The notes under the pieces were generated by a model, which was not told the DNA's origin, made no database searches, and was given only the letters and a program-made list of their open reading frames with translations. From assembly GCF_014279835.1 (NCBI RefSeq), contig NZ_CP047942.1:1240001-1304000 (forward strand): a stretch of 64,000 nt of DNA, read 5' to 3'. Position 1 is the stretch's first letter. The number at the start of each line of letters is the position of its first letter. Shown here in pieces: positions 15,417 to 60,088 of this stretch. The stretch is from Synechococcus sp. MVIR-18-1. Lineage in GTDB: Bacteria; Cyanobacteriota; Cyanobacteriia; PCC-6307; Cyanobiaceae. Both the position numbers and the translations under genes were made by a program.

Positions 15417-15840
15417 TGACTAGGCCAAACAGTATCAACATAGCAATACCATTAAAATGACACCATTAAACGAAGCCATTAGAAATCTTGCTGCGCTGGA
15501 TTCAATCTGCCCAATGAATGCAGGGCAGAGATCGCATCAGAACATAACTGCGCATTTTTTTATTTCGCTGTTATGTATGGCAATCGCCCCTGTTGCAAGC
15601 AACTCCACTTCCTCTGCAATCGTTCAAATCGATTTTTATTGTTTGATTATCAAAATGGTGAACCGCTGTGCCGTGCGAGCCCCAGTGTTCGACCTGGAGT
15701 TACCAGAAGGGGCGAAAGATTTCGAGAGGATTCGTTTCCGGCTACAAGGCCGGTTTACGGCACCAACACGACAGTCACCCCATGTCGAAAGAGAGTCAGA
15801 TCAGAGCACTAGAAAAGGCCGTCACCAACACAGCAGTTCT
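15417..15840 (+). other. 424-base stretch without a supportable gene
   Basis: Three overlapping plus-strand frames stay open here (from 15457, 15573 and 15668), none with a recognisable protein, and the longest runs into the 3' end of purK. From about 15650 the GC content rises. Around 15735-15762, TTTCCGGCTACAAGGCCGG can fold as a short hairpin. This could be a decayed gene or a structured RNA; I make no call. Confidence 0.35.
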
Positions 15841-17043
15841 TTACCAATTTAGGGGAAGAGGCCAGATTTCACGAATCCTTTGCAGCATTTGCTGGCCTCG
15901 CTCGCCACGCTCATCGGCTGTATGGCCATTGAGCAGGGTGGTGACATGACCCACTTTGCGCCCGGGGATCTCATCTTTTCCGTACCAATGCAGATGCAAG
16001 GCATCGATCGAGCGTAGTTTTGAAAGCCGTTCTTCAAGTGGTTCAGCCTGGTCAGCACTGAGACCAAGGAGATTGACCATCAAGGAGCCATCGGCAATGA
16101 ATTCTGGATTGGGGACATCAAGCCCTGCGGCAATACAGAGTTGTTGATCAAATTGGCTGCTTGAACAAGCCTCAATTGAGAAATGCCCTGAATTATGCGT
16201 TCGTGGTGCTATTTCATTTACGAATAAACCCTCTGACCCGTAGAAAAACTCCAATGTCATCACTCCTACATAGCTGAGCTTTGTGAGAAGTGAGGCCGCA
16301 ATGTTATAGGCCGTTGCTTCAACGAGTTGACTCACCGGTGCAGGTGCGATGACCCAGTCGCAAACCTGATTTTTCTGATGTGTTTCAGCTAAGGGCAGGC
16401 TACGAATACGCCCCTTTGAATCTCTGCTGACAACGAGAGCAAGTTCTTGTTCGTAGGAAACCCAGGCCTCGATTAACCACTCATTGGCATCGACGTTTCG
16501 AAGCAACTGTGCCAAACCATTTAGATCTTCTACAACCCTTGTGCCCTTCCCGTCGTAACCGCCGTAGGCAGCCTTCGCCATAACGGGAAAGGTCCATCCG
16601 CTCGGTAAGGATGGCGACCCAGGATTGAGTTCAGCTAATGAAATCCAATCTGGACTTGGAATCAAAAGGTCATTGAGTAGGCGCCTCTGGGACAACTTAT
16701 TGACAAGAGGGACCAAGCTCGCCAGTGATGGAGTGAATTGCACTCCCTGTCGCTCCATAGGCATCAAGGCATCGACAGCGACCCATTCGTTTTCGAAGGT
16801 GATGCCTACGCAATGCGATGACAGCTCCCTTGTTGCACGGACATCTGTGGATCCAGCAATCACTAAATCCTTAGCTAGTGAGGCAGCAGGGTCTTCGGCT
16901 TTAGAAGCTTGCACCGCAAGCGTCAAACCTCGTGTTTGCGCTGCTTCACCGAGCATGAGGGCAAGTTGCCCTCCACCGATCACCCCAATTGTGTTGTCAG
17001 CGTTGGGCATCCTTTGCAGATCGGTCTGAGTGGAGCTTGTCAT
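15841..17043 (-). CDS. purK: N5-carboxyaminoimidazole ribonucleotide synthase
   Basis: ATP-grasp enzyme of 400 residues that carboxylates AIR with bicarbonate in purine synthesis. The N-terminal Rossmann-type motif NTIGVIGGGQLALMLGEAA is diagnostic, followed by ITFENEWV, the ATP-grasp lysine region FPVMAKAAYGGYDGKGTRVV and the metal/ATP loop EFFYGSEGLFVNEIAPRTHN with GHFSIEAC. The start MTSSTQTDLQRMPNADNTIG at 17043 leaves a short extension; an ATG at 17010 is an alternative. It lies 27 bases downstream of the ABC permease gene on the same strand. Confidence 0.95.
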   Translation of the reverse strand: MTSSTQTDLQRMPNADNTIGVIGGGQLALMLGEAAQTRGLTLAVQASKAEDPAASLAKDLVIAGSTDVRATRELSSHCVGITFENEWVAVDALMPMERQGVQFTPSLASLVPLVNKLSQRRLLNDLLIPSPDWISLAELNPGSPSLPSGWTFPVMAKAAYGGYDGKGTRVVEDLNGLAQLLRNVDANEWLIEAWVSYEQELALVVSRDSKGRIRSLPLAETHQKNQVCDWVIAPAPVSQLVEATAYNIAASLLTKLSYVGVMTLEFFYGSEGLFVNEIAPRTHNSGHFSIEACSSSQFDQQLCIAAGLDVPNPEFIADGSLMVNLLGLSADQAEPLEERLSKLRSIDALHLHWYGKDEIPGRKVGHVTTLLNGHTADERGERGQQMLQRIREIWPLPLNW

Positions 17044-42919: not shown

Positions 42920-43756
42920 TTAGGATGATCTTGAATTGAGGTGGATGCTGCTGCTTAGCAACATTGCGAGTAGAAAACCAAGGAATTGAACCATCACGAC
43001 TGAAGGACCTGAAGGCAAATTTGTTAAGCCCGAGAAAAGGAGACCTAGCAATGCACATCCACCACCAATAGCAGAAGAAATCATCACATACACTGGAAAA
43101 CTTCGACTCAATAAACGGCCAGCACAAGCGGGAATCACAACAAAGGCTGAAATGAGCAACACACCTACAGCCTTGATTGATATGGCAACCACAACAGCCA
43201 AAAGGATGACAAATGCCAAACCATGCCAACGCGTACGTACTCCCATCGCGCCCGCCAAATCCTGATTCAGTGTGAGCAATACTTGAGCCCGCATACTGAG
43301 GCCTAGATAGATCACACTTGCAACAAGAAAGACTGCAATCACAACGATATCGAGTGGACTAATACCGAGGATATCTCCAAACAACAACTGTTGAATACCT
43401 CCGCGGTACGTCTTCACGCGACTCAGCACCAGAATCGCTACGGCCAGTGAGCTTGAATAAACAATGTTAAGCAGCGCATCAGTGGGAAGAGCACTGCGTT
43501 CAACCAACTGACTCACAAGCAGTGCAAAAAGCACGGCAAAAGGAATCAATACAAGCGTGGGATTCACGCCAAGCAGAATGCCAAGAGTGATTCCCAACAG
43601 AGATGAATGGCCTAAAGCATCGCTGAAGAACGACAGCTGACGAAGTACGGCAAAGCTGCCGAGTACTCCGCCAAGGGCACCTGTAAGCATCCCTCCAAGC
43701 AACGCCCTTTGCATGAACGGCTCAGACAGAAGGCTCCAAAATTGAAATTCAACCAT
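42920..43756 (-). CDS. znuB: Zinc/manganese ABC transporter permease, ZnuB type
   Basis: A 278-residue ABC-3 family permease with seven or eight membrane helices. FMQRALLGGMLTGALGGVLG, SFFSDALGHSSLLGITLGIL and AIKAVGVLLISAFVVIPACA (approximate residues 13, 43 and 190) are landmark segments. It overlaps the end of the ATPase gene by eight bases and is the last gene of the metal operon. The family transports Zn, Mn or Fe; zinc is inferred from the Zur-like operator and the ZnuA type. Confidence 0.88.
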   Translation of the reverse strand: MVEFQFWSLLSEPFMQRALLGGMLTGALGGVLGSFAVLRQLSFFSDALGHSSLLGITLGILLGVNPTLVLIPFAVLFALLVSQLVERSALPTDALLNIVYSSSLAVAILVLSRVKTYRGGIQQLLFGDILGISPLDIVVIAVFLVASVIYLGLSMRAQVLLTLNQDLAGAMGVRTRWHGLAFVILLAVVVAISIKAVGVLLISAFVVIPACAGRLLSRSFPVYVMISSAIGGGCALLGLLFSGLTNLPSGPSVVMVQFLGFLLAMLLSSSIHLNSRSS

Positions 43757-44516
43757 GGGGCTGAGGCACCATATTGAGGCCGTAAAGCTCTCCTAACCGC
43801 TCCTCACTGAGGGTTGCTTGCGGAGTGCCACTGCAGCGAAGACTCCGGTTCAGGCAAAGAACCTGATCGCTGCTGCGTCGAACCATCTCTAAGTCGTGCG
43901 AGACCTGCAAAACAGTCCAACCCTCCTCACGGCGTAGGTCGAGCAATTGCTGCTGAAACTGCTCATTGGAATGAACATCAAGACCGGCTTGCGCTTCATC
44001 GAGCACGAGCAAGCGTCGTGGACGAACAAGGCAAAAGGCCAGCAGAACACGTTTCAGCTGATCACCCGACAATTCCGTCAGCAAGCGTTTGCGTAGATCA
44101 CAGGTTTGGGTTCGGTCTAAGGCTCTCAAGACAGCTGCTGTTCTTTGCTTACCCGACCTCCACGGCAGGCTTGGTCCTGGCAAGTCAAACCCAAAGCCCA
44201 CAAACTCAGCAACACTGAGCGGAATCAACCCTTGAATCACAAGGTTTTGAGGTACATAAGCGATCTGAGCCCGCACAGAACGCGGCAAACAACCATTGGC
44301 AGCTATGGGCTGACCCAGCAGCTCAACACGCCCAGAAGCATGGGGAAGCAGTCCAAGCAAAGCAGCGACAAGCGTGCTCTTTCCTGCTCCATTGGGACCG
44401 ACAAGGGCCGTGTCGCTTTCAGCAGGGAGAGAAAAGGAAACCCCCTCTACTGCCAAACGCCCTCGGCGTTCGACGCTTAGATCATGAACCTGGAGGATTG
44501 CTTCTTTCACACTCAT
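43749..44516 (-). CDS. znuC: Zinc ABC transporter ATPase, ZnuC type
   Basis: A 255-residue ABC ATPase. Walker A is LVGPNGAGKSTLVAALLGLL, the Q-loop lies in IAYVPQNL, the signature is LTELSGDQLKRVLLA (LSGDQ, not LSGGQ), Walker B is LLVLDEAQAGLDV (DEAQ) and the switch histidine follows in LQVSHDLEMV. It is two bases after znuA and overlaps znuB. The signature and Walker B variants are conservative, and activity is expected. It powers import through ZnuB. Confidence 0.9.
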   Translation of the reverse strand: MSVKEAILQVHDLSVERRGRLAVEGVSFSLPAESDTALVGPNGAGKSTLVAALLGLLPHASGRVELLGQPIAANGCLPRSVRAQIAYVPQNLVIQGLIPLSVAEFVGFGFDLPGPSLPWRSGKQRTAAVLRALDRTQTCDLRKRLLTELSGDQLKRVLLAFCLVRPRRLLVLDEAQAGLDVHSNEQFQQQLLDLRREEGWTVLQVSHDLEMVRRSSDQVLCLNRSLRCSGTPQATLSEERLGELYGLNMVPQPHG

Positions 44517-45511: not shown

Positions 45512-47104
45512 TTAAAAGTTGAAAGTTGTTTTTACCAATCCACCTAGTTGACTAAACGTATTATCGTTATCATCAAGATCAGTATTTTGACCCTCCGGAC
45601 GGCTCAAATAGAATAATGCGGGTGTAACACTAATGTTGTCAGTGACCTGGAACTGGTACCACCATTCCCATACATAATTACCATCAGCTGGAGTTAAATC
45701 ACCTTTCAGACTAGTTGCAAAAATAGGTTGGCCTACAGCCATACCTGCATTGTTGCCTTTCAGGAAGACGTCTGCCCATTCCAGACCAAGATTCCATGAC
45801 TGACTGGCCGTGACATCTCCAGCATTCTTAGCGTAAACAGAGTTATAGCCATAACCTGCTGAGACAGATGGTATCCAACCACTGTCTTGTGGTTGCCAGG
45901 AGCCGCCAATACCCCAAGCATTCATAAAGCTGTTACCACCTGAAAAGTAGTTTTCTGCAGCAAATGGAGTGCCAAAACTACCGGCTAATTCAGATGGACT
46001 TTGAACACCTGACCAAATTGCAGCGATGTTCCAGCTTTCTGATTCATAAGCAATTTGTATAGTTCCTGAAGCTTCTGAAAACTCAGTTCCTATACCACCA
46101 GCATTGGGGTCTGAACTTGAACCCTGAGCAGCAACATAGTTGGCAGAGACGCTGAAACCGTTGTCAGCTGACCAACTAACACCAGCTCCTGTTCCCAGGT
46201 TTTTGTTGTAAGCAGCTGGAGCACCATTTAATGTTGTTATATCCAAGATTGCATCGATTGGATACGCACTAGGCCATACGGCAAGCATATCTTCCTGACC
46301 AACACGAGCACCGAGAGTGAAGGTGAGTGAGTCGGCAACAGAAAATTGATAAAAAAGCTTGTCAATTCCTAAATTACTTCCACCATTTTCTTGAAATGCT
46401 GTTTCTAAAGTTGACAATGCATTAGGACTGCCTCCAAAAGCAAAATTACCATCGAAGTTACCTGTTCTTAAGACAGTAAGCAATAAATCCTTTCCCGTGA
46501 AACTAGTTTCAAGACTTAATTGAAGGTCGTAATTGAACGTAGTAGCGCCAAAATCTCTATTGGCTGCATCTGCTTTTGATTTGGTTCCAGAAAAGTTATT
46601 GGCACCAACAACAAACGTTGCCAATCCTGAAAGCTTGGTGGTGGTGGAGAACTGAGTGGCTTCCAGTTCGCCAACGCGGGCTTCAAGCCCGTCAACACGG
46701 CCCTTGAGGATGGCAAGTTCTTTTTCGAACTCTTTCATCAGGCGCTTCAGCTCGTCGGTCACTTCGGTGACGCGGTCGAGACAGGCGTTCAACAAAGCAG
46801 CCGCTTCAAAGCGGGTCATCGCCCTGTTACCGCGGTAGGTGCCGTTGGGATAACCAGCAACACAGCCGTAGCGCTCGATCAGGTTGCTAAGAGCCTGATA
46901 AGCCCAATCGGTTGGGTAAACGTCTGAAAACTGAGTGATGCTGGTGACTTGCTCGCGGCTGCTGGCAACAGAGTGCACCGTGTTTTCGGGCATATCATTG
47001 ATACTGAGATCAATAACACTGGATGCTTTGCTCTTCGGATTAGCTGTCGAAAAAACAATACTCAAAGTTGCAGGCACAATGAATATTTTCCGAATTAAAT
47101 TCAT
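45512..47104 (-). CDS. Outer-membrane porin with SLH domain (SomA/OprB type)
   Basis: About 530 residues from the ATG at 47104 (MNLIRKIFIVPATLSIVFST signal peptide). An SLH domain follows (FSDVYPTDWAYQALSNLIER, YGCVAGYPNGTYRGNRAMTR), which binds the peptidoglycan-linked polymer, then a coiled coil (EFEKELAILKGRVDGLEARV) and an OprB-type beta barrel ending in phenylalanine (VKTTFNF). Cyanobacterial genomes have many such porins. This one lies between hupE and znuA on one strand with 84- and 36-base gaps, so it is a candidate metal-permeable porin. A strong AAGGAGG at 47132-47138 is too far (27 bases) from the ATG to serve it directly. Confidence 0.9.
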   Translation of the reverse strand: MNLIRKIFIVPATLSIVFSTANPKSKASSVIDLSINDMPENTVHSVASSREQVTSITQFSDVYPTDWAYQALSNLIERYGCVAGYPNGTYRGNRAMTRFEAAALLNACLDRVTEVTDELKRLMKEFEKELAILKGRVDGLEARVGELEATQFSTTTKLSGLATFVVGANNFSGTKSKADAANRDFGATTFNYDLQLSLETSFTGKDLLLTVLRTGNFDGNFAFGGSPNALSTLETAFQENGGSNLGIDKLFYQFSVADSLTFTLGARVGQEDMLAVWPSAYPIDAILDITTLNGAPAAYNKNLGTGAGVSWSADNGFSVSANYVAAQGSSSDPNAGGIGTEFSEASGTIQIAYESESWNIAAIWSGVQSPSELAGSFGTPFAAENYFSGGNSFMNAWGIGGSWQPQDSGWIPSVSAGYGYNSVYAKNAGDVTASQSWNLGLEWADVFLKGNNAGMAVGQPIFATSLKGDLTPADGNYVWEWWYQFQVTDNISVTPALFYLSRPEGQNTDLDDNDNTFSQLGGLVKTTFNF

Positions 47105-47188: not shown

Positions 47189-47821
47189 TTAGTCGATCAG
47201 TGCGACCCAGGCAAAGGCAATTCCGATACCCATCCAGATCCCAGCACCGAGACGACGCCCTTGCTCTCCAAGGTGAGTGATCACGGTTTGCGATAAAGAG
47301 CAGACAAGGGCTAATAAAACACCTTGTCCTATTAGCAAACCTAAGAAGTAGGTGATGAGAGGAGTGGGCTCCGCTCCGACAATGGTGCTGCCAAGCAAAA
47401 AGCCATGCAGACCAAAGAGCGGCAGAAGCCAGGCAGCTGGAGCGATTGAAAGCGCGATCAGGCCCTCAACCACAAGGCTTAACGACACGAGGGCTTCAGC
47501 CCAGGGCGCAACTACATCAGGTAAGGGGATGAACTGAGAAATCAGGCTTCCGCCTAAGCCGATGGCCAGCATTGGAATAATCCAGGCGCTCGGACGCTTA
47601 AGACCAATGAATGCGATGGCCAGCAAAAAGAGCAAATGGTCTGGCCCAAGAAGTGGGTGGCCAATGCCACTCACAAGACCCGACCATCCGGTGAGCTGGG
47701 TGCTGTCACCCATGCCAAACGGGTGGTGAGCAAAAGCTGGACTTCCCAGCAAAAGGAGAGGAATAATTCCTAGGGCAGCCGTTTTGATCGGCCCCAAGAA
47801 GGCCTGTTTCGAAAGAGTCAA
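47189..47821 (-). CDS. hupE: HupE/UreJ family metal (probably cobalt or nickel) transporter
   Basis: A 210-residue membrane protein from a TTG at 47821, with GAGGA six bases upstream. The start was chosen because it begins a clean signal peptide (IKTAALGIIPLLLLGSPAFA) whose cleavage exposes HHPFG, the metal-binding N-terminus of the family. GIGHPLLGPDHLLFLLAIAF is the HupE signature and LFGLHGFLLG the second motif; about six helices. The frame is open to 47914, but that part is occupied by the riboswitch. A cobalamin riboswitch in its leader points to cobalt; the Zur-like box and znuABC downstream point to zinc, so the substrate is open. Confidence 0.85.
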   Translation of the reverse strand: MTLSKQAFLGPIKTAALGIIPLLLLGSPAFAHHPFGMGDSTQLTGWSGLVSGIGHPLLGPDHLLFLLAIAFIGLKRPSAWIIPMLAIGLGGSLISQFIPLPDVVAPWAEALVSLSLVVEGLIALSIAPAAWLLPLFGLHGFLLGSTIVGAEPTPLITYFLGLLIGQGVLLALVCSLSQTVITHLGEQGRRLGAGIWMGIGIAFAWVALID

Positions 47822-47848
47822 TTGTCGATCCTCGTCGGTTGTAGATCT

Positions 47849-47975
47849 GGCGGGCGTTCTGACTGACGGCTCCCGAAGAGACGCTTCACAGCTGCGGGAC
47901 AGCGACGGAATCACACCGTTCTTTCCCCGTTTCCTTCTCAGGCTGACCCCTGAGAAACCAGTAGAAGAACTTTAG
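47849..47975 (-). promoter_or_regulatory. Cobalamin riboswitch, compact type, in the hupE leader
   Basis: Read on the reverse strand, the leader contains the conserved cobalamin-aptamer core in order: ACGGGGAAAGAACGGTGTGA (about 47930-47911), ATTCCGTC, GCTGTCCCGCAGCTGTGA (47903-47886) and GTCAGAACGCCCGCC (to 47849). A stem TCTCAGG...CCTGAGA (47955-47936) precedes the core. The peripheral GCCACTG domain of the large class I aptamers is missing between the core and the 3' strand, so this resembles the short class II / AdoCbl-variant form common in marine bacteria. The aptamer ends 27 bases before the TTG start, close enough to control translation by hiding GAGGA. Confidence 0.85.
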
Positions 47976-47989
47976 CTCAGTTCTTACAA

Positions 47990-48008
47990 AATGAGAATCA
48001 TTTTCATG
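47990..48008 (-). promoter_or_regulatory. Zur/Fur-like operator upstream of the hupE riboswitch
   Basis: The 19-bp sequence AATGAGAATCATTTTCATG is an imperfect palindrome (7 of 9 pairs about a central C) matching the Fur-family pattern with the core GAAT-N-ATTNNCAT. It lies about 15 bases before the start of the riboswitch, where a promoter is expected. Zur is preferred over Fur because znuABC is downstream and a similar site occurs at 60070 before a COG0523 gene. Confidence 0.65.
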
Positions 48009-48855: not shown

Positions 48856-49484
48856 GTGCTGATCCTGCTCAAAGTGGCGGCTGGATTTTGTCTTTGCATC
48901 CCACTCAGCGCATTGCCTAGTGGTGCTGAGACCCCATTAACGTGCAGCGGCCTTGACCTTGTGTCATTAAATAGGGTTTCACCAAGACCTCTGTTTGAAA
49001 TTCGCTATGCCAGTTCTAATAATTTTCTAGGACAAACCCTTTATCCCAAGGTTGACCACAACTACGTTGTCCCGTGGCCTTGGCACTACAAAACGTCCAA
49101 CAAGATCTTGCCAAGGAAGGACTTAGATTAAAAATTTGGGATGCTCATCGTCCACTTGCTGTTCAGCAGCTGATGTGGGATGCAATCCAAGACCTTCGCT
49201 ACGTTTCAGATCCCTCAGTCAATGCTGGACGTCATACCCGAGGCGCTTCAGTGGATGTAACACTCATCAATCAGCAGGGGAGTCCGTTGCGAATGCCAAC
49301 GGATTACGACGATTTTTCGAAGTCCGCCCATGTGGATGCTGATGGCGTTCTCGCTGACCGCGCCGCCAATGCTCAAAAACTACGAACGGCAATGGAGCGC
49401 AGAGGATTTCGTTTCTTTGCCACGGAATGGTGGCATGTCGACTGGCACAACTGGAAATTCCTGCCGGTCATCGCACCCTCATGA
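48856..49484 (+). pseudogene. D-alanyl-D-alanine dipeptidase (VanX/DdpX, M15D), frameshifted
   Basis: Two overlapping frames together make one VanX-type enzyme. The first (48856-49131, GTG start) has a signal peptide (ILLKVAAGFCLCIPLSALPS) and the start of the domain, FEIRYASSNNFLGQTLYPKV. The second frame, open between 49056 and 49484, continues with QLRCPVALALQNVQQDLAKE, IWDAHRPLAVQQLMWDAI, the zinc site GRHTRGASVDVTL (H and D) and EWWHVDW (E and H). The join needs a one-base shift between 49053 and about 49062. All catalytic residues survive in the second part, so the break is recent or a sequencing error. Without the shift the product would stop after about 91 residues. Confidence 0.8.
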
Positions 49485-59243: not shown

Positions 59244-60025
59244 AGTTGAAGGTCTTGTTGTTGCTGACGCAGCTGTGCCTGCTGCATTTCAAGCACGTCA
59301 TCAGTGAGTAAGCAGTCGTTGATCGTGCTCTGGATAGCGGCGTGATCCAGAGCTTTGCCCTGAACTACTAAATGAGAGATGCGATTGGGCCGGGAGGTGA
59401 GTGGCTCAACGGCTTCCAGGGGAAGAAACTGAGAACTCTCTTGGCTCACCATCTAATTGCAGAAAAATGAACGGCCATCAGGCAAGTTCATGAGTGCTTT
59501 GGCGCGATACACATCGCCATAGGCACCATTCACAAGCTCAAACCAAAAACTGCTGAGGCTGTTCGGGTCCCAAACACAGCCGTGAAGAGTGAGATGCCAG
59601 GCCTCGAGCTGGGTGAAGTTCAGCGTGTGGTGCTTGGGTAACTCAGGGTCTCGACCAAACAGAAAGATTCGATCGGGTTTGAGTTGGAAGCTGGTTAACT
59701 GCTTGAGAACGTGAAGGTCGATTCCACCGGCGTTACTTTGATCTGGAGGCTGAAACTGTTGAACCTCAATCAACACCAAGCAGTCCTGGGAAGGCAACGC
59801 TGTTTTTGAAGCTGAAGTTGAAATGGAAAGATCTTGCAGCTTGGGAACCTGATCCATCAACCAAGCGCAATCGATCCCTGCGTTATGGCCCTGTTCCAAC
59901 CCCTCATCACTGGGACCATCGAGCCGCAGGTAGGCGCATTCACCTCCATGCTTAAGCAAGGTCTCAAGAATCCAGGTCGTTTTTCCGCAGCCGGGTGGGC
60001 CAGTGATTAACCAGGTCTGCTGCAT
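59198..60025 (-). pseudogene. COG0523/CobW-family P-loop GTPase, interrupted by an in-frame amber stop
   Basis: The N-terminal part (60025-59453, 190 residues) begins MQQTWLITGPPGCGKTTWIL with a GxxGxGKTT P-loop and runs to PDGRSFFCN. Then comes one TAG at 59455-59453, followed directly in frame by ATG and 84 residues (MVSQESSQFLPLEAVEPLTS, PNRISHLVVQGKALDHAAIQ) that form the CobW C-terminal domain. A tryptophan TGG to TAG change in FFCN-W-MVSQ would explain it. The ATG after the stop could allow re-initiation. COG0523 proteins are metal chaperones; the Zur-like box at 60070 fits a zinc role. The tail reads into another gene's remains. Confidence 0.75.
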
Positions 60026-60069
60026 CGTTCAGGACTTGAGGACAGCTCCACCCACGCAGACATCGCATA

Positions 60070-60088
60070 AATGGGAATCATTCTCATT
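60070..60088 (-). promoter_or_regulatory. Zur-like operator before the COG0523 gene
   Basis: AATGGGAATCATTCTCATT is a near-perfect palindrome, 8 of 9 pairs about a central C, of the same type as the site at 47990. It lies 45 bases upstream of the COG0523 start and also 80 to 100 bases before the forward gene at 60168, so it may serve both. Confidence 0.7.

What the first reader, a model, noticed from the sequence alone, without database searches (positions are those of the whole stretch)
47189..48008. Zur/Fur-like box and cobalamin riboswitch stacked in one leader before hupE and a metal-uptake operon
Reading leftwards: a 19-bp Fur-family palindrome (48008-47990), then the full core of a compact cobalamin riboswitch (about 47975-47849), then hupE, the porin and znuACB, all on one strand with small gaps. 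Two sensors, one for a metal (transcription) and one for B12 (RNA), would control the same transcript. Riboswitch-controlled HupE proteins are predicted cobalt importers, while znuABC imports zinc. If the genes are one transcript, B12 status would reach zinc uptake, a link I do not know to be described. If not, there must be an internal promoter before the porin or znuA.
Basis: partly seen in the sequence, partly recalled or inferred. Interest (0 to 1): 0.75.

Follow-up and report, generated by a model that had tools for sequence, protein, structure and literature searches.

The report
Zinc-type operator plus B12 riboswitch leader
In a marine Synechococcus, one short stretch of DNA carries both a site of the zinc-sensor type and a vitamin-B12-sensing RNA ahead of genes for taking up cobalt and probably zinc, and a few close relatives keep much the same two-part leader, so zinc and B12 supply may jointly set metal uptake.

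Summary
Both elements are real. The riboswitch is RF00174 at 47977-47832 (-), 58.2 bits. The box TGAAAATGATTCTCA is one of two exact matches to TGANAATNATTNTCA in the 2.45-Mb genome and scores 22.6 bits with a matrix from sites before znuA or porin-znuACB of other genomes. It covers a putative -35, 17 nt before a putative -10. Behind lie hupE, a porin and znuACB.

The leader persists while its genes change: before hupE alone in G019 and G023; before porin-znuACB without hupE in G012, though 276 nt away. In G007 (UW140) a riboswitch without box abuts the porin of porin-znuACB. Here the Shine-Dalgarno touches the aptamer and no Rho gene was found, so direct B12 control probably reaches hupE only. 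ZnuA in the three genomes with znuACB beside rsmE lacks the His-rich loop that 19 of 22 orthologues keep, so zinc specificity is uncertain. Zur binding, the joint transcript and the metals are inferred.

The parts
47992..48006 (-). Zur-type (Fur-family) operator TGAAAATGATTCTCA; matrix match spans 47987-48008
   Evidence: 1 of 2 exact pattern matches in the genome; 22.6 bits; 15, 14 and 14 of 15 bases kept in G023, G019 and G012 at 16 nt from the -10
47992..47997 (-). putative -35 (TTCTCA), inside the box
   Evidence: read, 17 nt before the -10; weak match to TTGACA; not picked up by the promoter scan; inference
47969..47974 (-). putative -10 (TAAAGT); inferred transcript start near 47962
   Evidence: TA at this place in all 19 leaders aligned; start site not measured
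47832..47977 (-). Cobalamin riboswitch aptamer (RF00174)
   Evidence: cmscan 58.2 bits, gathering 31.5; 35 such elements in 27 of 31 genus genomes
47830..47833 (-). Shine-Dalgarno GAGG at the 3' edge of the aptamer, inside CGACGAGGATCGA
   Evidence: sequence; the motif also follows the aptamer before the porin in G007 and G012; some other leaders have CGACGCGGATCG or CGACGTGGATCG
47189..47821 (-). hupE, HupE/UreJ-family permease, TTG start, motif HPLLGPDH
   Evidence: PF04955 61.3 bits; motif in translation
45512..47104 (-). SLH + OprB porin (NCBIfam 'iron uptake porin')
   Evidence: PF00395, PF04966; NF033921 290.4 bits
44519..45475 (-). znuA-like binding protein without the His-rich loop
   Evidence: PF01297 245.7 bits; alignment
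43749..44516 (-). znuC-like ABC ATPase
   Evidence: PF00005 84.9 bits
42920..43756 (-). znuB-like ABC-3 permease
   Evidence: PF00950 189.6 bits
47131..47152 (-). hairpin in the hupE-porin gap, possible processing or weak termination site
   Evidence: terminator-like match, but 8 found in the region against 5.9 +/- 2.6 in shuffles; fold of the gap z -0.71

Best explanation
This is the promoter and leader of a five-gene metal-uptake operon with two stacked controls. Zur loaded with zinc (gene at L003:1480-1878, SynZur-like) is inferred to bind the box over the -35 and block transcription; when zinc is short, transcription begins near 47962. In the RNA, cobalamin bound to the riboswitch is inferred to hide the hupE Shine-Dalgarno, so HupE, the likely cobalt permease, is made in quantity only when both zinc and B12 are low. 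The porin and the ZnuACB-type ABC system are inferred to share the transcript: their level would be set mainly by Zur, and B12 would reach them only indirectly here (RNA stability or translational coupling), but directly in G007, where the riboswitch abuts the porin. The operon probably serves cobalt supply, or cobalt and zinc together. Shown: the elements, their order, spacing and conservation. Inferred: Zur binding, the transcript, the switching direction, the metals.
For: Riboswitch by covariance model. Box rare in the genome and fitting sites before znuA/porin-znuACB orthologues. SynZur-like protein present: best PDB match 7NE9, E 3.9e-60, which PMC9337993 names as the WH8102 Zur. Box, -10 and aptamer keep their spacing in G000, G012, G019 and G023 although the genes behind differ. 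A riboswitch heads porin-znuACB in G007 (porin TTG 9 nt after GAGG) and G012. No second Zur-type site in the operon, whereas G013 and G020, whose porin-znuACB has no riboswitch, carry such a site just before the porin. hupE-porin adjacency on one strand in 9 of 21 loci. SD and start codon directly follow the aptamer. No Rho: best match 24.5 bits against a cut-off of 509.45, with 8 of 14 control genomes over it.
Against: No transcript, binding or ligand data. The box has A where the 17 training sites have T or G (GAAAAT against GATAAT/GAGAAT). Its relatives score lower: G012 15.8, G023 14.5, G019 10.5 bits (the last two on the reverse strand), while leaders without the arrangement reached 14.2 (G057) and 12.5 (G041), so those three rest on position and core identity, not score. 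The box is absent from AG-683-C23, whose HupE is 89-90% identical. The other perfect pattern match (539949) has no metal gene in its 3-kb locus. In G012 the porin start lies 276 nt beyond the start of a 28-codon ORF that begins at the riboswitch SD. Of 17 genus genomes with this ZnuA, a riboswitch heads the operon in 3 (G000 through hupE, G007, G012), 13 show none there, and G005 is cut by its contig end. Promoter-like matches on the coding strand lie inside the porin (45642-45613) and znuA (45165-45137); the scan found 6 against 3.9 +/- 1.8 by chance and missed the proposed leader promoter, so it decides little. A hairpin lies in the hupE-porin gap.
Confidence: 0.55

Rival explanations
1. Two units: the box and riboswitch serve hupE alone, as in G019 and G023, and porin-znuACB merely lies behind it, with its own promoter or cut off by the gap hairpin.
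For: hupE is alone behind the same leader in G019 and G023; an 84-nt gap with a hairpin; a promoter-like match in the porin 3' end about 140 nt before znuA; a translational switch needs no downstream genes; window-type znuACB behind hupE in 1 of 21 loci.
Against: No promoter-like match or Zur-type site in the hupE-porin gap itself, though the scan is weak. G012 keeps the leader before porin-znuACB without hupE. hupE-porin adjacency in 9 of 21 loci.
Confidence: 0.3
2. The box is a Fur (iron) site, not a Zur site.
For: Fur and Zur boxes share the 7-1-7 palindrome (recalled); the training sites were picked by eye for such a palindrome; the porin is called an 'iron uptake porin' by NCBIfam; the GAAAAT half is unlike the 17 znuA-type sites; three FUR-family genes are present.
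Against: The matrix comes from sites before znuA or porin-znuACB and finds the box. I could not derive Fur sites here: no such palindrome (best 9 of 12) in the flavodoxin locus, and the PF13343 hit did not look like FutA to me.
Confidence: 0.2
3. The ABC system has become a cobalt importer: a ZnuACB copy recruited under B12 control, so the whole operon feeds cobalt to B12 synthesis.
For: Riboswitch before porin-znuACB in G007 and G012; His-rich loop missing in G000, G005 and G012, the three genomes seen with znuACB beside rsmE, and present in the other 19 of 22.
Against: G007 keeps the loop although riboswitch-led. The three His that I take for metal ligands (recalled) are unchanged in the 19 aligned. 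The leader of G005 is not visible (contig end). In the ZnuC+ZnuB tree G005 groups with loop-bearing G013 and G020, so loss does not map to one event.
Confidence: 0.3

Closest known systems
B12-riboswitch-controlled hupE of cyanobacteria
   Same: RF00174 leader directly before a HupE/UreJ permease predicted to import cobalt (PMC4284471 and PMC7689651, passages seen)
   Different: A Zur-type operator over the promoter and, in this genome, porin-znuACB behind hupE; neither is mentioned in the passages seen
SynZur regulon of Synechococcus WH8102 (PMC9337993, passages seen)
   Same: Zur box overlapping the promoter of a znuABC system; SynZur-like protein present
   Different: There the box lies between divergent znuA and znuC, and 'hupE', 'porin' and 'B12' do not occur in the text; here it lies before a riboswitch and hupE
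Zur-regulated cobalt handling in Pseudomonas aeruginosa (PMC13083405, passages seen)
   Same: Zur-regulated operons linked to cobalt trafficking during zinc starvation
   Different: Different genes (pyochelin-linked transport) and no riboswitch in the passages seen

Membership tests
Cobalamin riboswitch (RF00174) | covariance-model score above the gathering threshold over the full model | tested here: met
   58.2 against 31.5 bits, model positions 1-189
Cobalamin riboswitch (RF00174) | binds a cobamide and changes expression | not testable with these tools
   no ligand or expression data
Zur operator | fits the site type found before znuA orthologues | tested here: met
   22.6 bits with a matrix from 17 of the 21 regions
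Zur operator | distinguishable from a Fur operator | tested here: inconclusive
   no Fur sites could be derived in this genome
Zur operator | zinc-dependent Zur binding | not testable with these tools
   needs EMSA; SynZur-like protein present
HupE/UreJ permease | Pfam profile and HPXXGXDH motif | tested here: met
   PF04955 61.3 bits against 23; HPLLGPDH in the translation; motif as quoted
ZnuABC zinc importer | ZnuA, ABC ATPase and ABC-3 permease in one cluster | tested here: met
ZnuABC zinc importer | His-rich loop of ZnuA (typical of zinc ZnuA, recalled; not strictly defining) | tested here: not met
   no His in the loop of G000; 19 of 22 orthologues keep it, G035 with 3 His only
ZnuABC zinc importer | score above the NCBIfam ZnuA cut-off | tested here: not met
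   PRK09545 115.9 bits against 268; none of the 8 NCBIfam models listed for this protein reached its cut-off

The most novel reading that the evidence does not exclude
A zinc-and-B12 AND gate: one leader lets cells raise cobalt import only when both zinc and B12 are short, and the ZnuACB-type system behind it has been re-tasked to cobalt (His-rich loop lost), with B12-riboswitch control of such a system arising at least twice in Synechococcus.
Probability: 0.3. Interest if true: 0.75.

Novelty: new variant of a known kind. Interest (0 to 1): 0.55.

Why it matters
Zinc and cobalt are scarce in surface seawater and can replace each other in some enzymes (general knowledge). A promoter that reads zinc and an RNA that reads B12 on the same message would tie the two budgets together, and the strains named here make that testable. 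It also warns against calling every znuABC behind a Zur-type site a zinc importer.

Tried and rejected
bmtA as the gene beside the other perfect box (539949): no Cys-rich ORF in the 3-kb locus; an integrase-type ORF (PF00589) lies about 660 nt away. Fur sites for contrast: the PF13343 hit did not look like FutA, and no palindrome was found in the flavodoxin locus. CobW for the ORF behind the second window site: no Pfam match; NCBIfam gave only a 15.4-bit partial hit to an unrelated model. The box-like site before hupE of G018 scored 10.1 bits and was not counted as a box. The 141-nt stretch from inside the aptamer into hupE folds less stably than its shuffles (z 2.28); pseudoknots are not modelled, so I drew nothing from it. 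The loop contact that would hide the SD was not tested. I first read the three-subunit tree (97 for the split that sets G000, G012 and G005 apart) as one loss of the His loop; the ZnuC+ZnuB trees did not support that.

With that, and the promoter-scan results now told in full, I lowered the main explanation from 0.6 to 0.55 and the novel case from 0.35 to 0.3, lowered the cobalt-importer rival from 0.35 to 0.3 and raised the two-unit rival from 0.25 to 0.3.

Rows dropped: matrix training used 17 of the 21 upstream regions; left out were the two riboswitch-led porins (G007, G012), a second porin of G020, and G060. The 17 sites were picked by eye for a Fur-family palindrome. The 102 leaders count some genomes twice (named and unnamed copies); L182 and L212-L217 were left out. 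One search aligned 19 chosen leaders, not all. One search aligned 19 of 22 fetched ZnuA orthologues; the loops of the other three (G028, G035, G060) were read, G028 only from its 249-aa main tblastn piece. One search covered 8 of the 20 stretches with Rfam; for the genus genomes the riboswitch positions come.

Papers: I saw search listings with abstract openings and passages of PMC9337993, PMC7689651, PMC4284471, PMC2667541, PMC2770081, PMC13083405 and PMC4771312; none was read whole. In these I saw no description of a box plus riboswitch leader, or of a riboswitch before porin-znuACB.

Full report
Where it is. The window is bases 1240001-1304000 of a single-contig 2.45-Mb genome. Its relatives include Synechococcus WH7803 (G009), UW140 (G007), UW105 (G011) and the SP2 MAG (G019), identified by equal contig length and place. 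The strain itself was not named by any search.

The two elements. Rfam finds a full-length cobalamin riboswitch at 47977-47832. Fifteen to 29 bases upstream of its first base sits TGAAAATGATTCTCA (48006-47992). One other exact match to TGANAATNATTNTCA exists in the genome. Sites of the same kind lie before znuA or porin-znuACB orthologues in relatives. A matrix from 17 of those, none from a hupE leader, gives the box 22.6 bits; the only stronger site in the window scores 25.1 at 60067-60088, and the next unrelated site 9.1. One 2-Mb Markov simulation held none of 20 bits or more.

Promoter anatomy. Seventeen bases separate the box (ending TTCTCA) from TAAAGT, a plausible -10. G019, G023 and G012 show 16 bases and TAAGAT, TAAGAT and TACGAT. 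All 19 leaders that I aligned have TA there. I infer a start near 47962, just before the CUGG that can pair with CCAG near the 3' end of the aptamer, and repression by a protein over the -35. A consensus promoter scan did not pick up this promoter, so its silence elsewhere is weak evidence; on the coding strand it did report matches inside the porin and znuA genes.

Which protein. The genome has three FUR-family genes. The 132-aa product at L003:1480-1878 has its best PDB match in 7NE9, E 3.9e-60, which PMC9337993 names as the WH8102 Zur. I could not derive a Fur motif for contrast, so Fur remains possible.

The leader is kept while the genes change. G019 and G023: box (14 and 15 of 15 bases), riboswitch, hupE, then rsmE, with no porin or znuACB between. 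Window: box, riboswitch, hupE, porin, znuACB, rsmE. G012: box (14 of 15), riboswitch, a 28-codon ORF whose start lies 276 nt before the porin, then porin, znuACB, rsmE, without hupE; its riboswitch is 78% identical to those of G000, G019 and G023 and at most 70% to the other 15 compared. By matrix score alone G012 (15.8), G023 (14.5) and G019 (10.5) would not stand clear of unrelated leaders, which reach 14.2; position and core identity carry the case. G007: riboswitch, porin start 9 bases after GAGG, znuACB, and no box seen; this riboswitch is closest (74%) to hupE riboswitches of other lineages. So two separate links of a B12 riboswitch to porin-znuACB are likely.

Counts in the genus. Searches covered 31 genomes, this one included: 35 riboswitches in 27 of them. 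By position against stand before HupE-type genes (one, in G008, confirmed by Pfam), 2 before porin-znuACB (G007, G012) and 1 before a DUF3721-type ORF (G018). The window-type ZnuA (E 1e-60 or better) occurs in 17 of 31; a riboswitch heads its operon in 3, none is there in 13, and G005 is cut by its contig end. Among 21 hupE loci of at least 68% identity (window and L035-L054), a porin follows on the same strand within 700 nt in 9; window-type znuACB follows in the window only, but two loci (G029, G034) end within 500 nt behind hupE. AG-683-C23 (HupE 89-90%) has hupE-porin without a box.

How far B12 reaches. The SD lies at the edge of the aptamer, and the motif that holds it follows the aptamer before hupE and before the porin of G007 alike. 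The start codon is 8 nt beyond GAGG, and I see no room for a terminator, so I infer control of translation. The search for Rho gave only 24.5 bits against a cut-off of 509.45, so Rho-dependent polarity is unlikely. In this strain B12 would thus act directly on hupE, and on porin-znuACB only indirectly. In G007 it would act directly on the porin.

Which metal. HupE has the HPXXGXDH motif and a riboswitch, as in predicted cobalt importers. In G000, G005 and G012, the three genomes seen with znuACB beside rsmE, the His-rich loop of ZnuA is replaced by mainly acidic or polar residues with 0, 0 and 1 His. The other 19 of 22 orthologues fetched keep it (G035 with 3 His), among them G013 and G020, whose porin-znuACB has a Zur-type site and no riboswitch, and G007, which has a riboswitch. 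The three-subunit tree separates G000, G005 and G012 from the rest (97), but ZnuC+ZnuB alone places G005 with G013 and G020 (69 for protein, 98 for DNA), so a single loss is not established. The correlation rests on three genomes, one with an unseen leader.

Novelty. Riboswitch-controlled hupE and Zur-controlled znuABC are both known in cyanobacteria. In my paper searches and the passages seen I met no report of both controls on one leader, nor of a B12 riboswitch before porin-znuACB. I therefore call it a new variant of a known kind.

Noticed in passing
L034 598-11458 (genome 1500597-1511457): A second riboswitch-hupE pair (53.4 bits) lies on one strand inside a metal island: ZnuA-type ABC genes, DUF3721 gene, riboswitch, hupE, ArsP_1 permease, DUF1980-type gene, further ABC genes and a ZnuA-type protein with a 27.7-bit Zur-type site before it. 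The flanking ABC genes also flank hupE in G005, G013, G019 and G020.
   Followed up: partly
window 60067-60088 and 59453-60025 (-): The strongest Zur-type site of the window (25.1 bits) stands about 40 nt before a 190-aa P-loop-like ORF without a Pfam match.
   Followed up: partly
L152 1501-1515 (genome 539949-539963): A perfect box palindrome in a gene-poor stretch with a phage-integrase-type ORF about 660 nt away; no metal gene found in the 3-kb locus.
   Followed up: partly
window 48856-49484 (+): A D-Ala-D-Ala dipeptidase-type ORF (PF01427, 49074-49484) overlaps an ORF in another frame that looks like its missing start but has no Pfam match; in G012 the matching stretch also falls into two pieces.
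   Followed up: partly
genome 2375844-2377643; L164 1357-3015: A 357-bp tandem repeat, 100% matches over 4.6 copies up to the end of L164.
   Followed up: no
window 15656-15842 (-): 6S RNA (RF00013), 87.2 bits.
   Followed up: no
L145 5917-6068 (G018): A cobalamin riboswitch followed by a DUF3721-type ORF, with no hupE directly behind it.
   Followed up: partly
L039 8790-8804 (G018): TGAAAACCATTCTCA just before the riboswitch-hupE, next to a divergent znuA-like gene; 10.1 bits only, yet possibly another case of stacked controls.
   Followed up: partly
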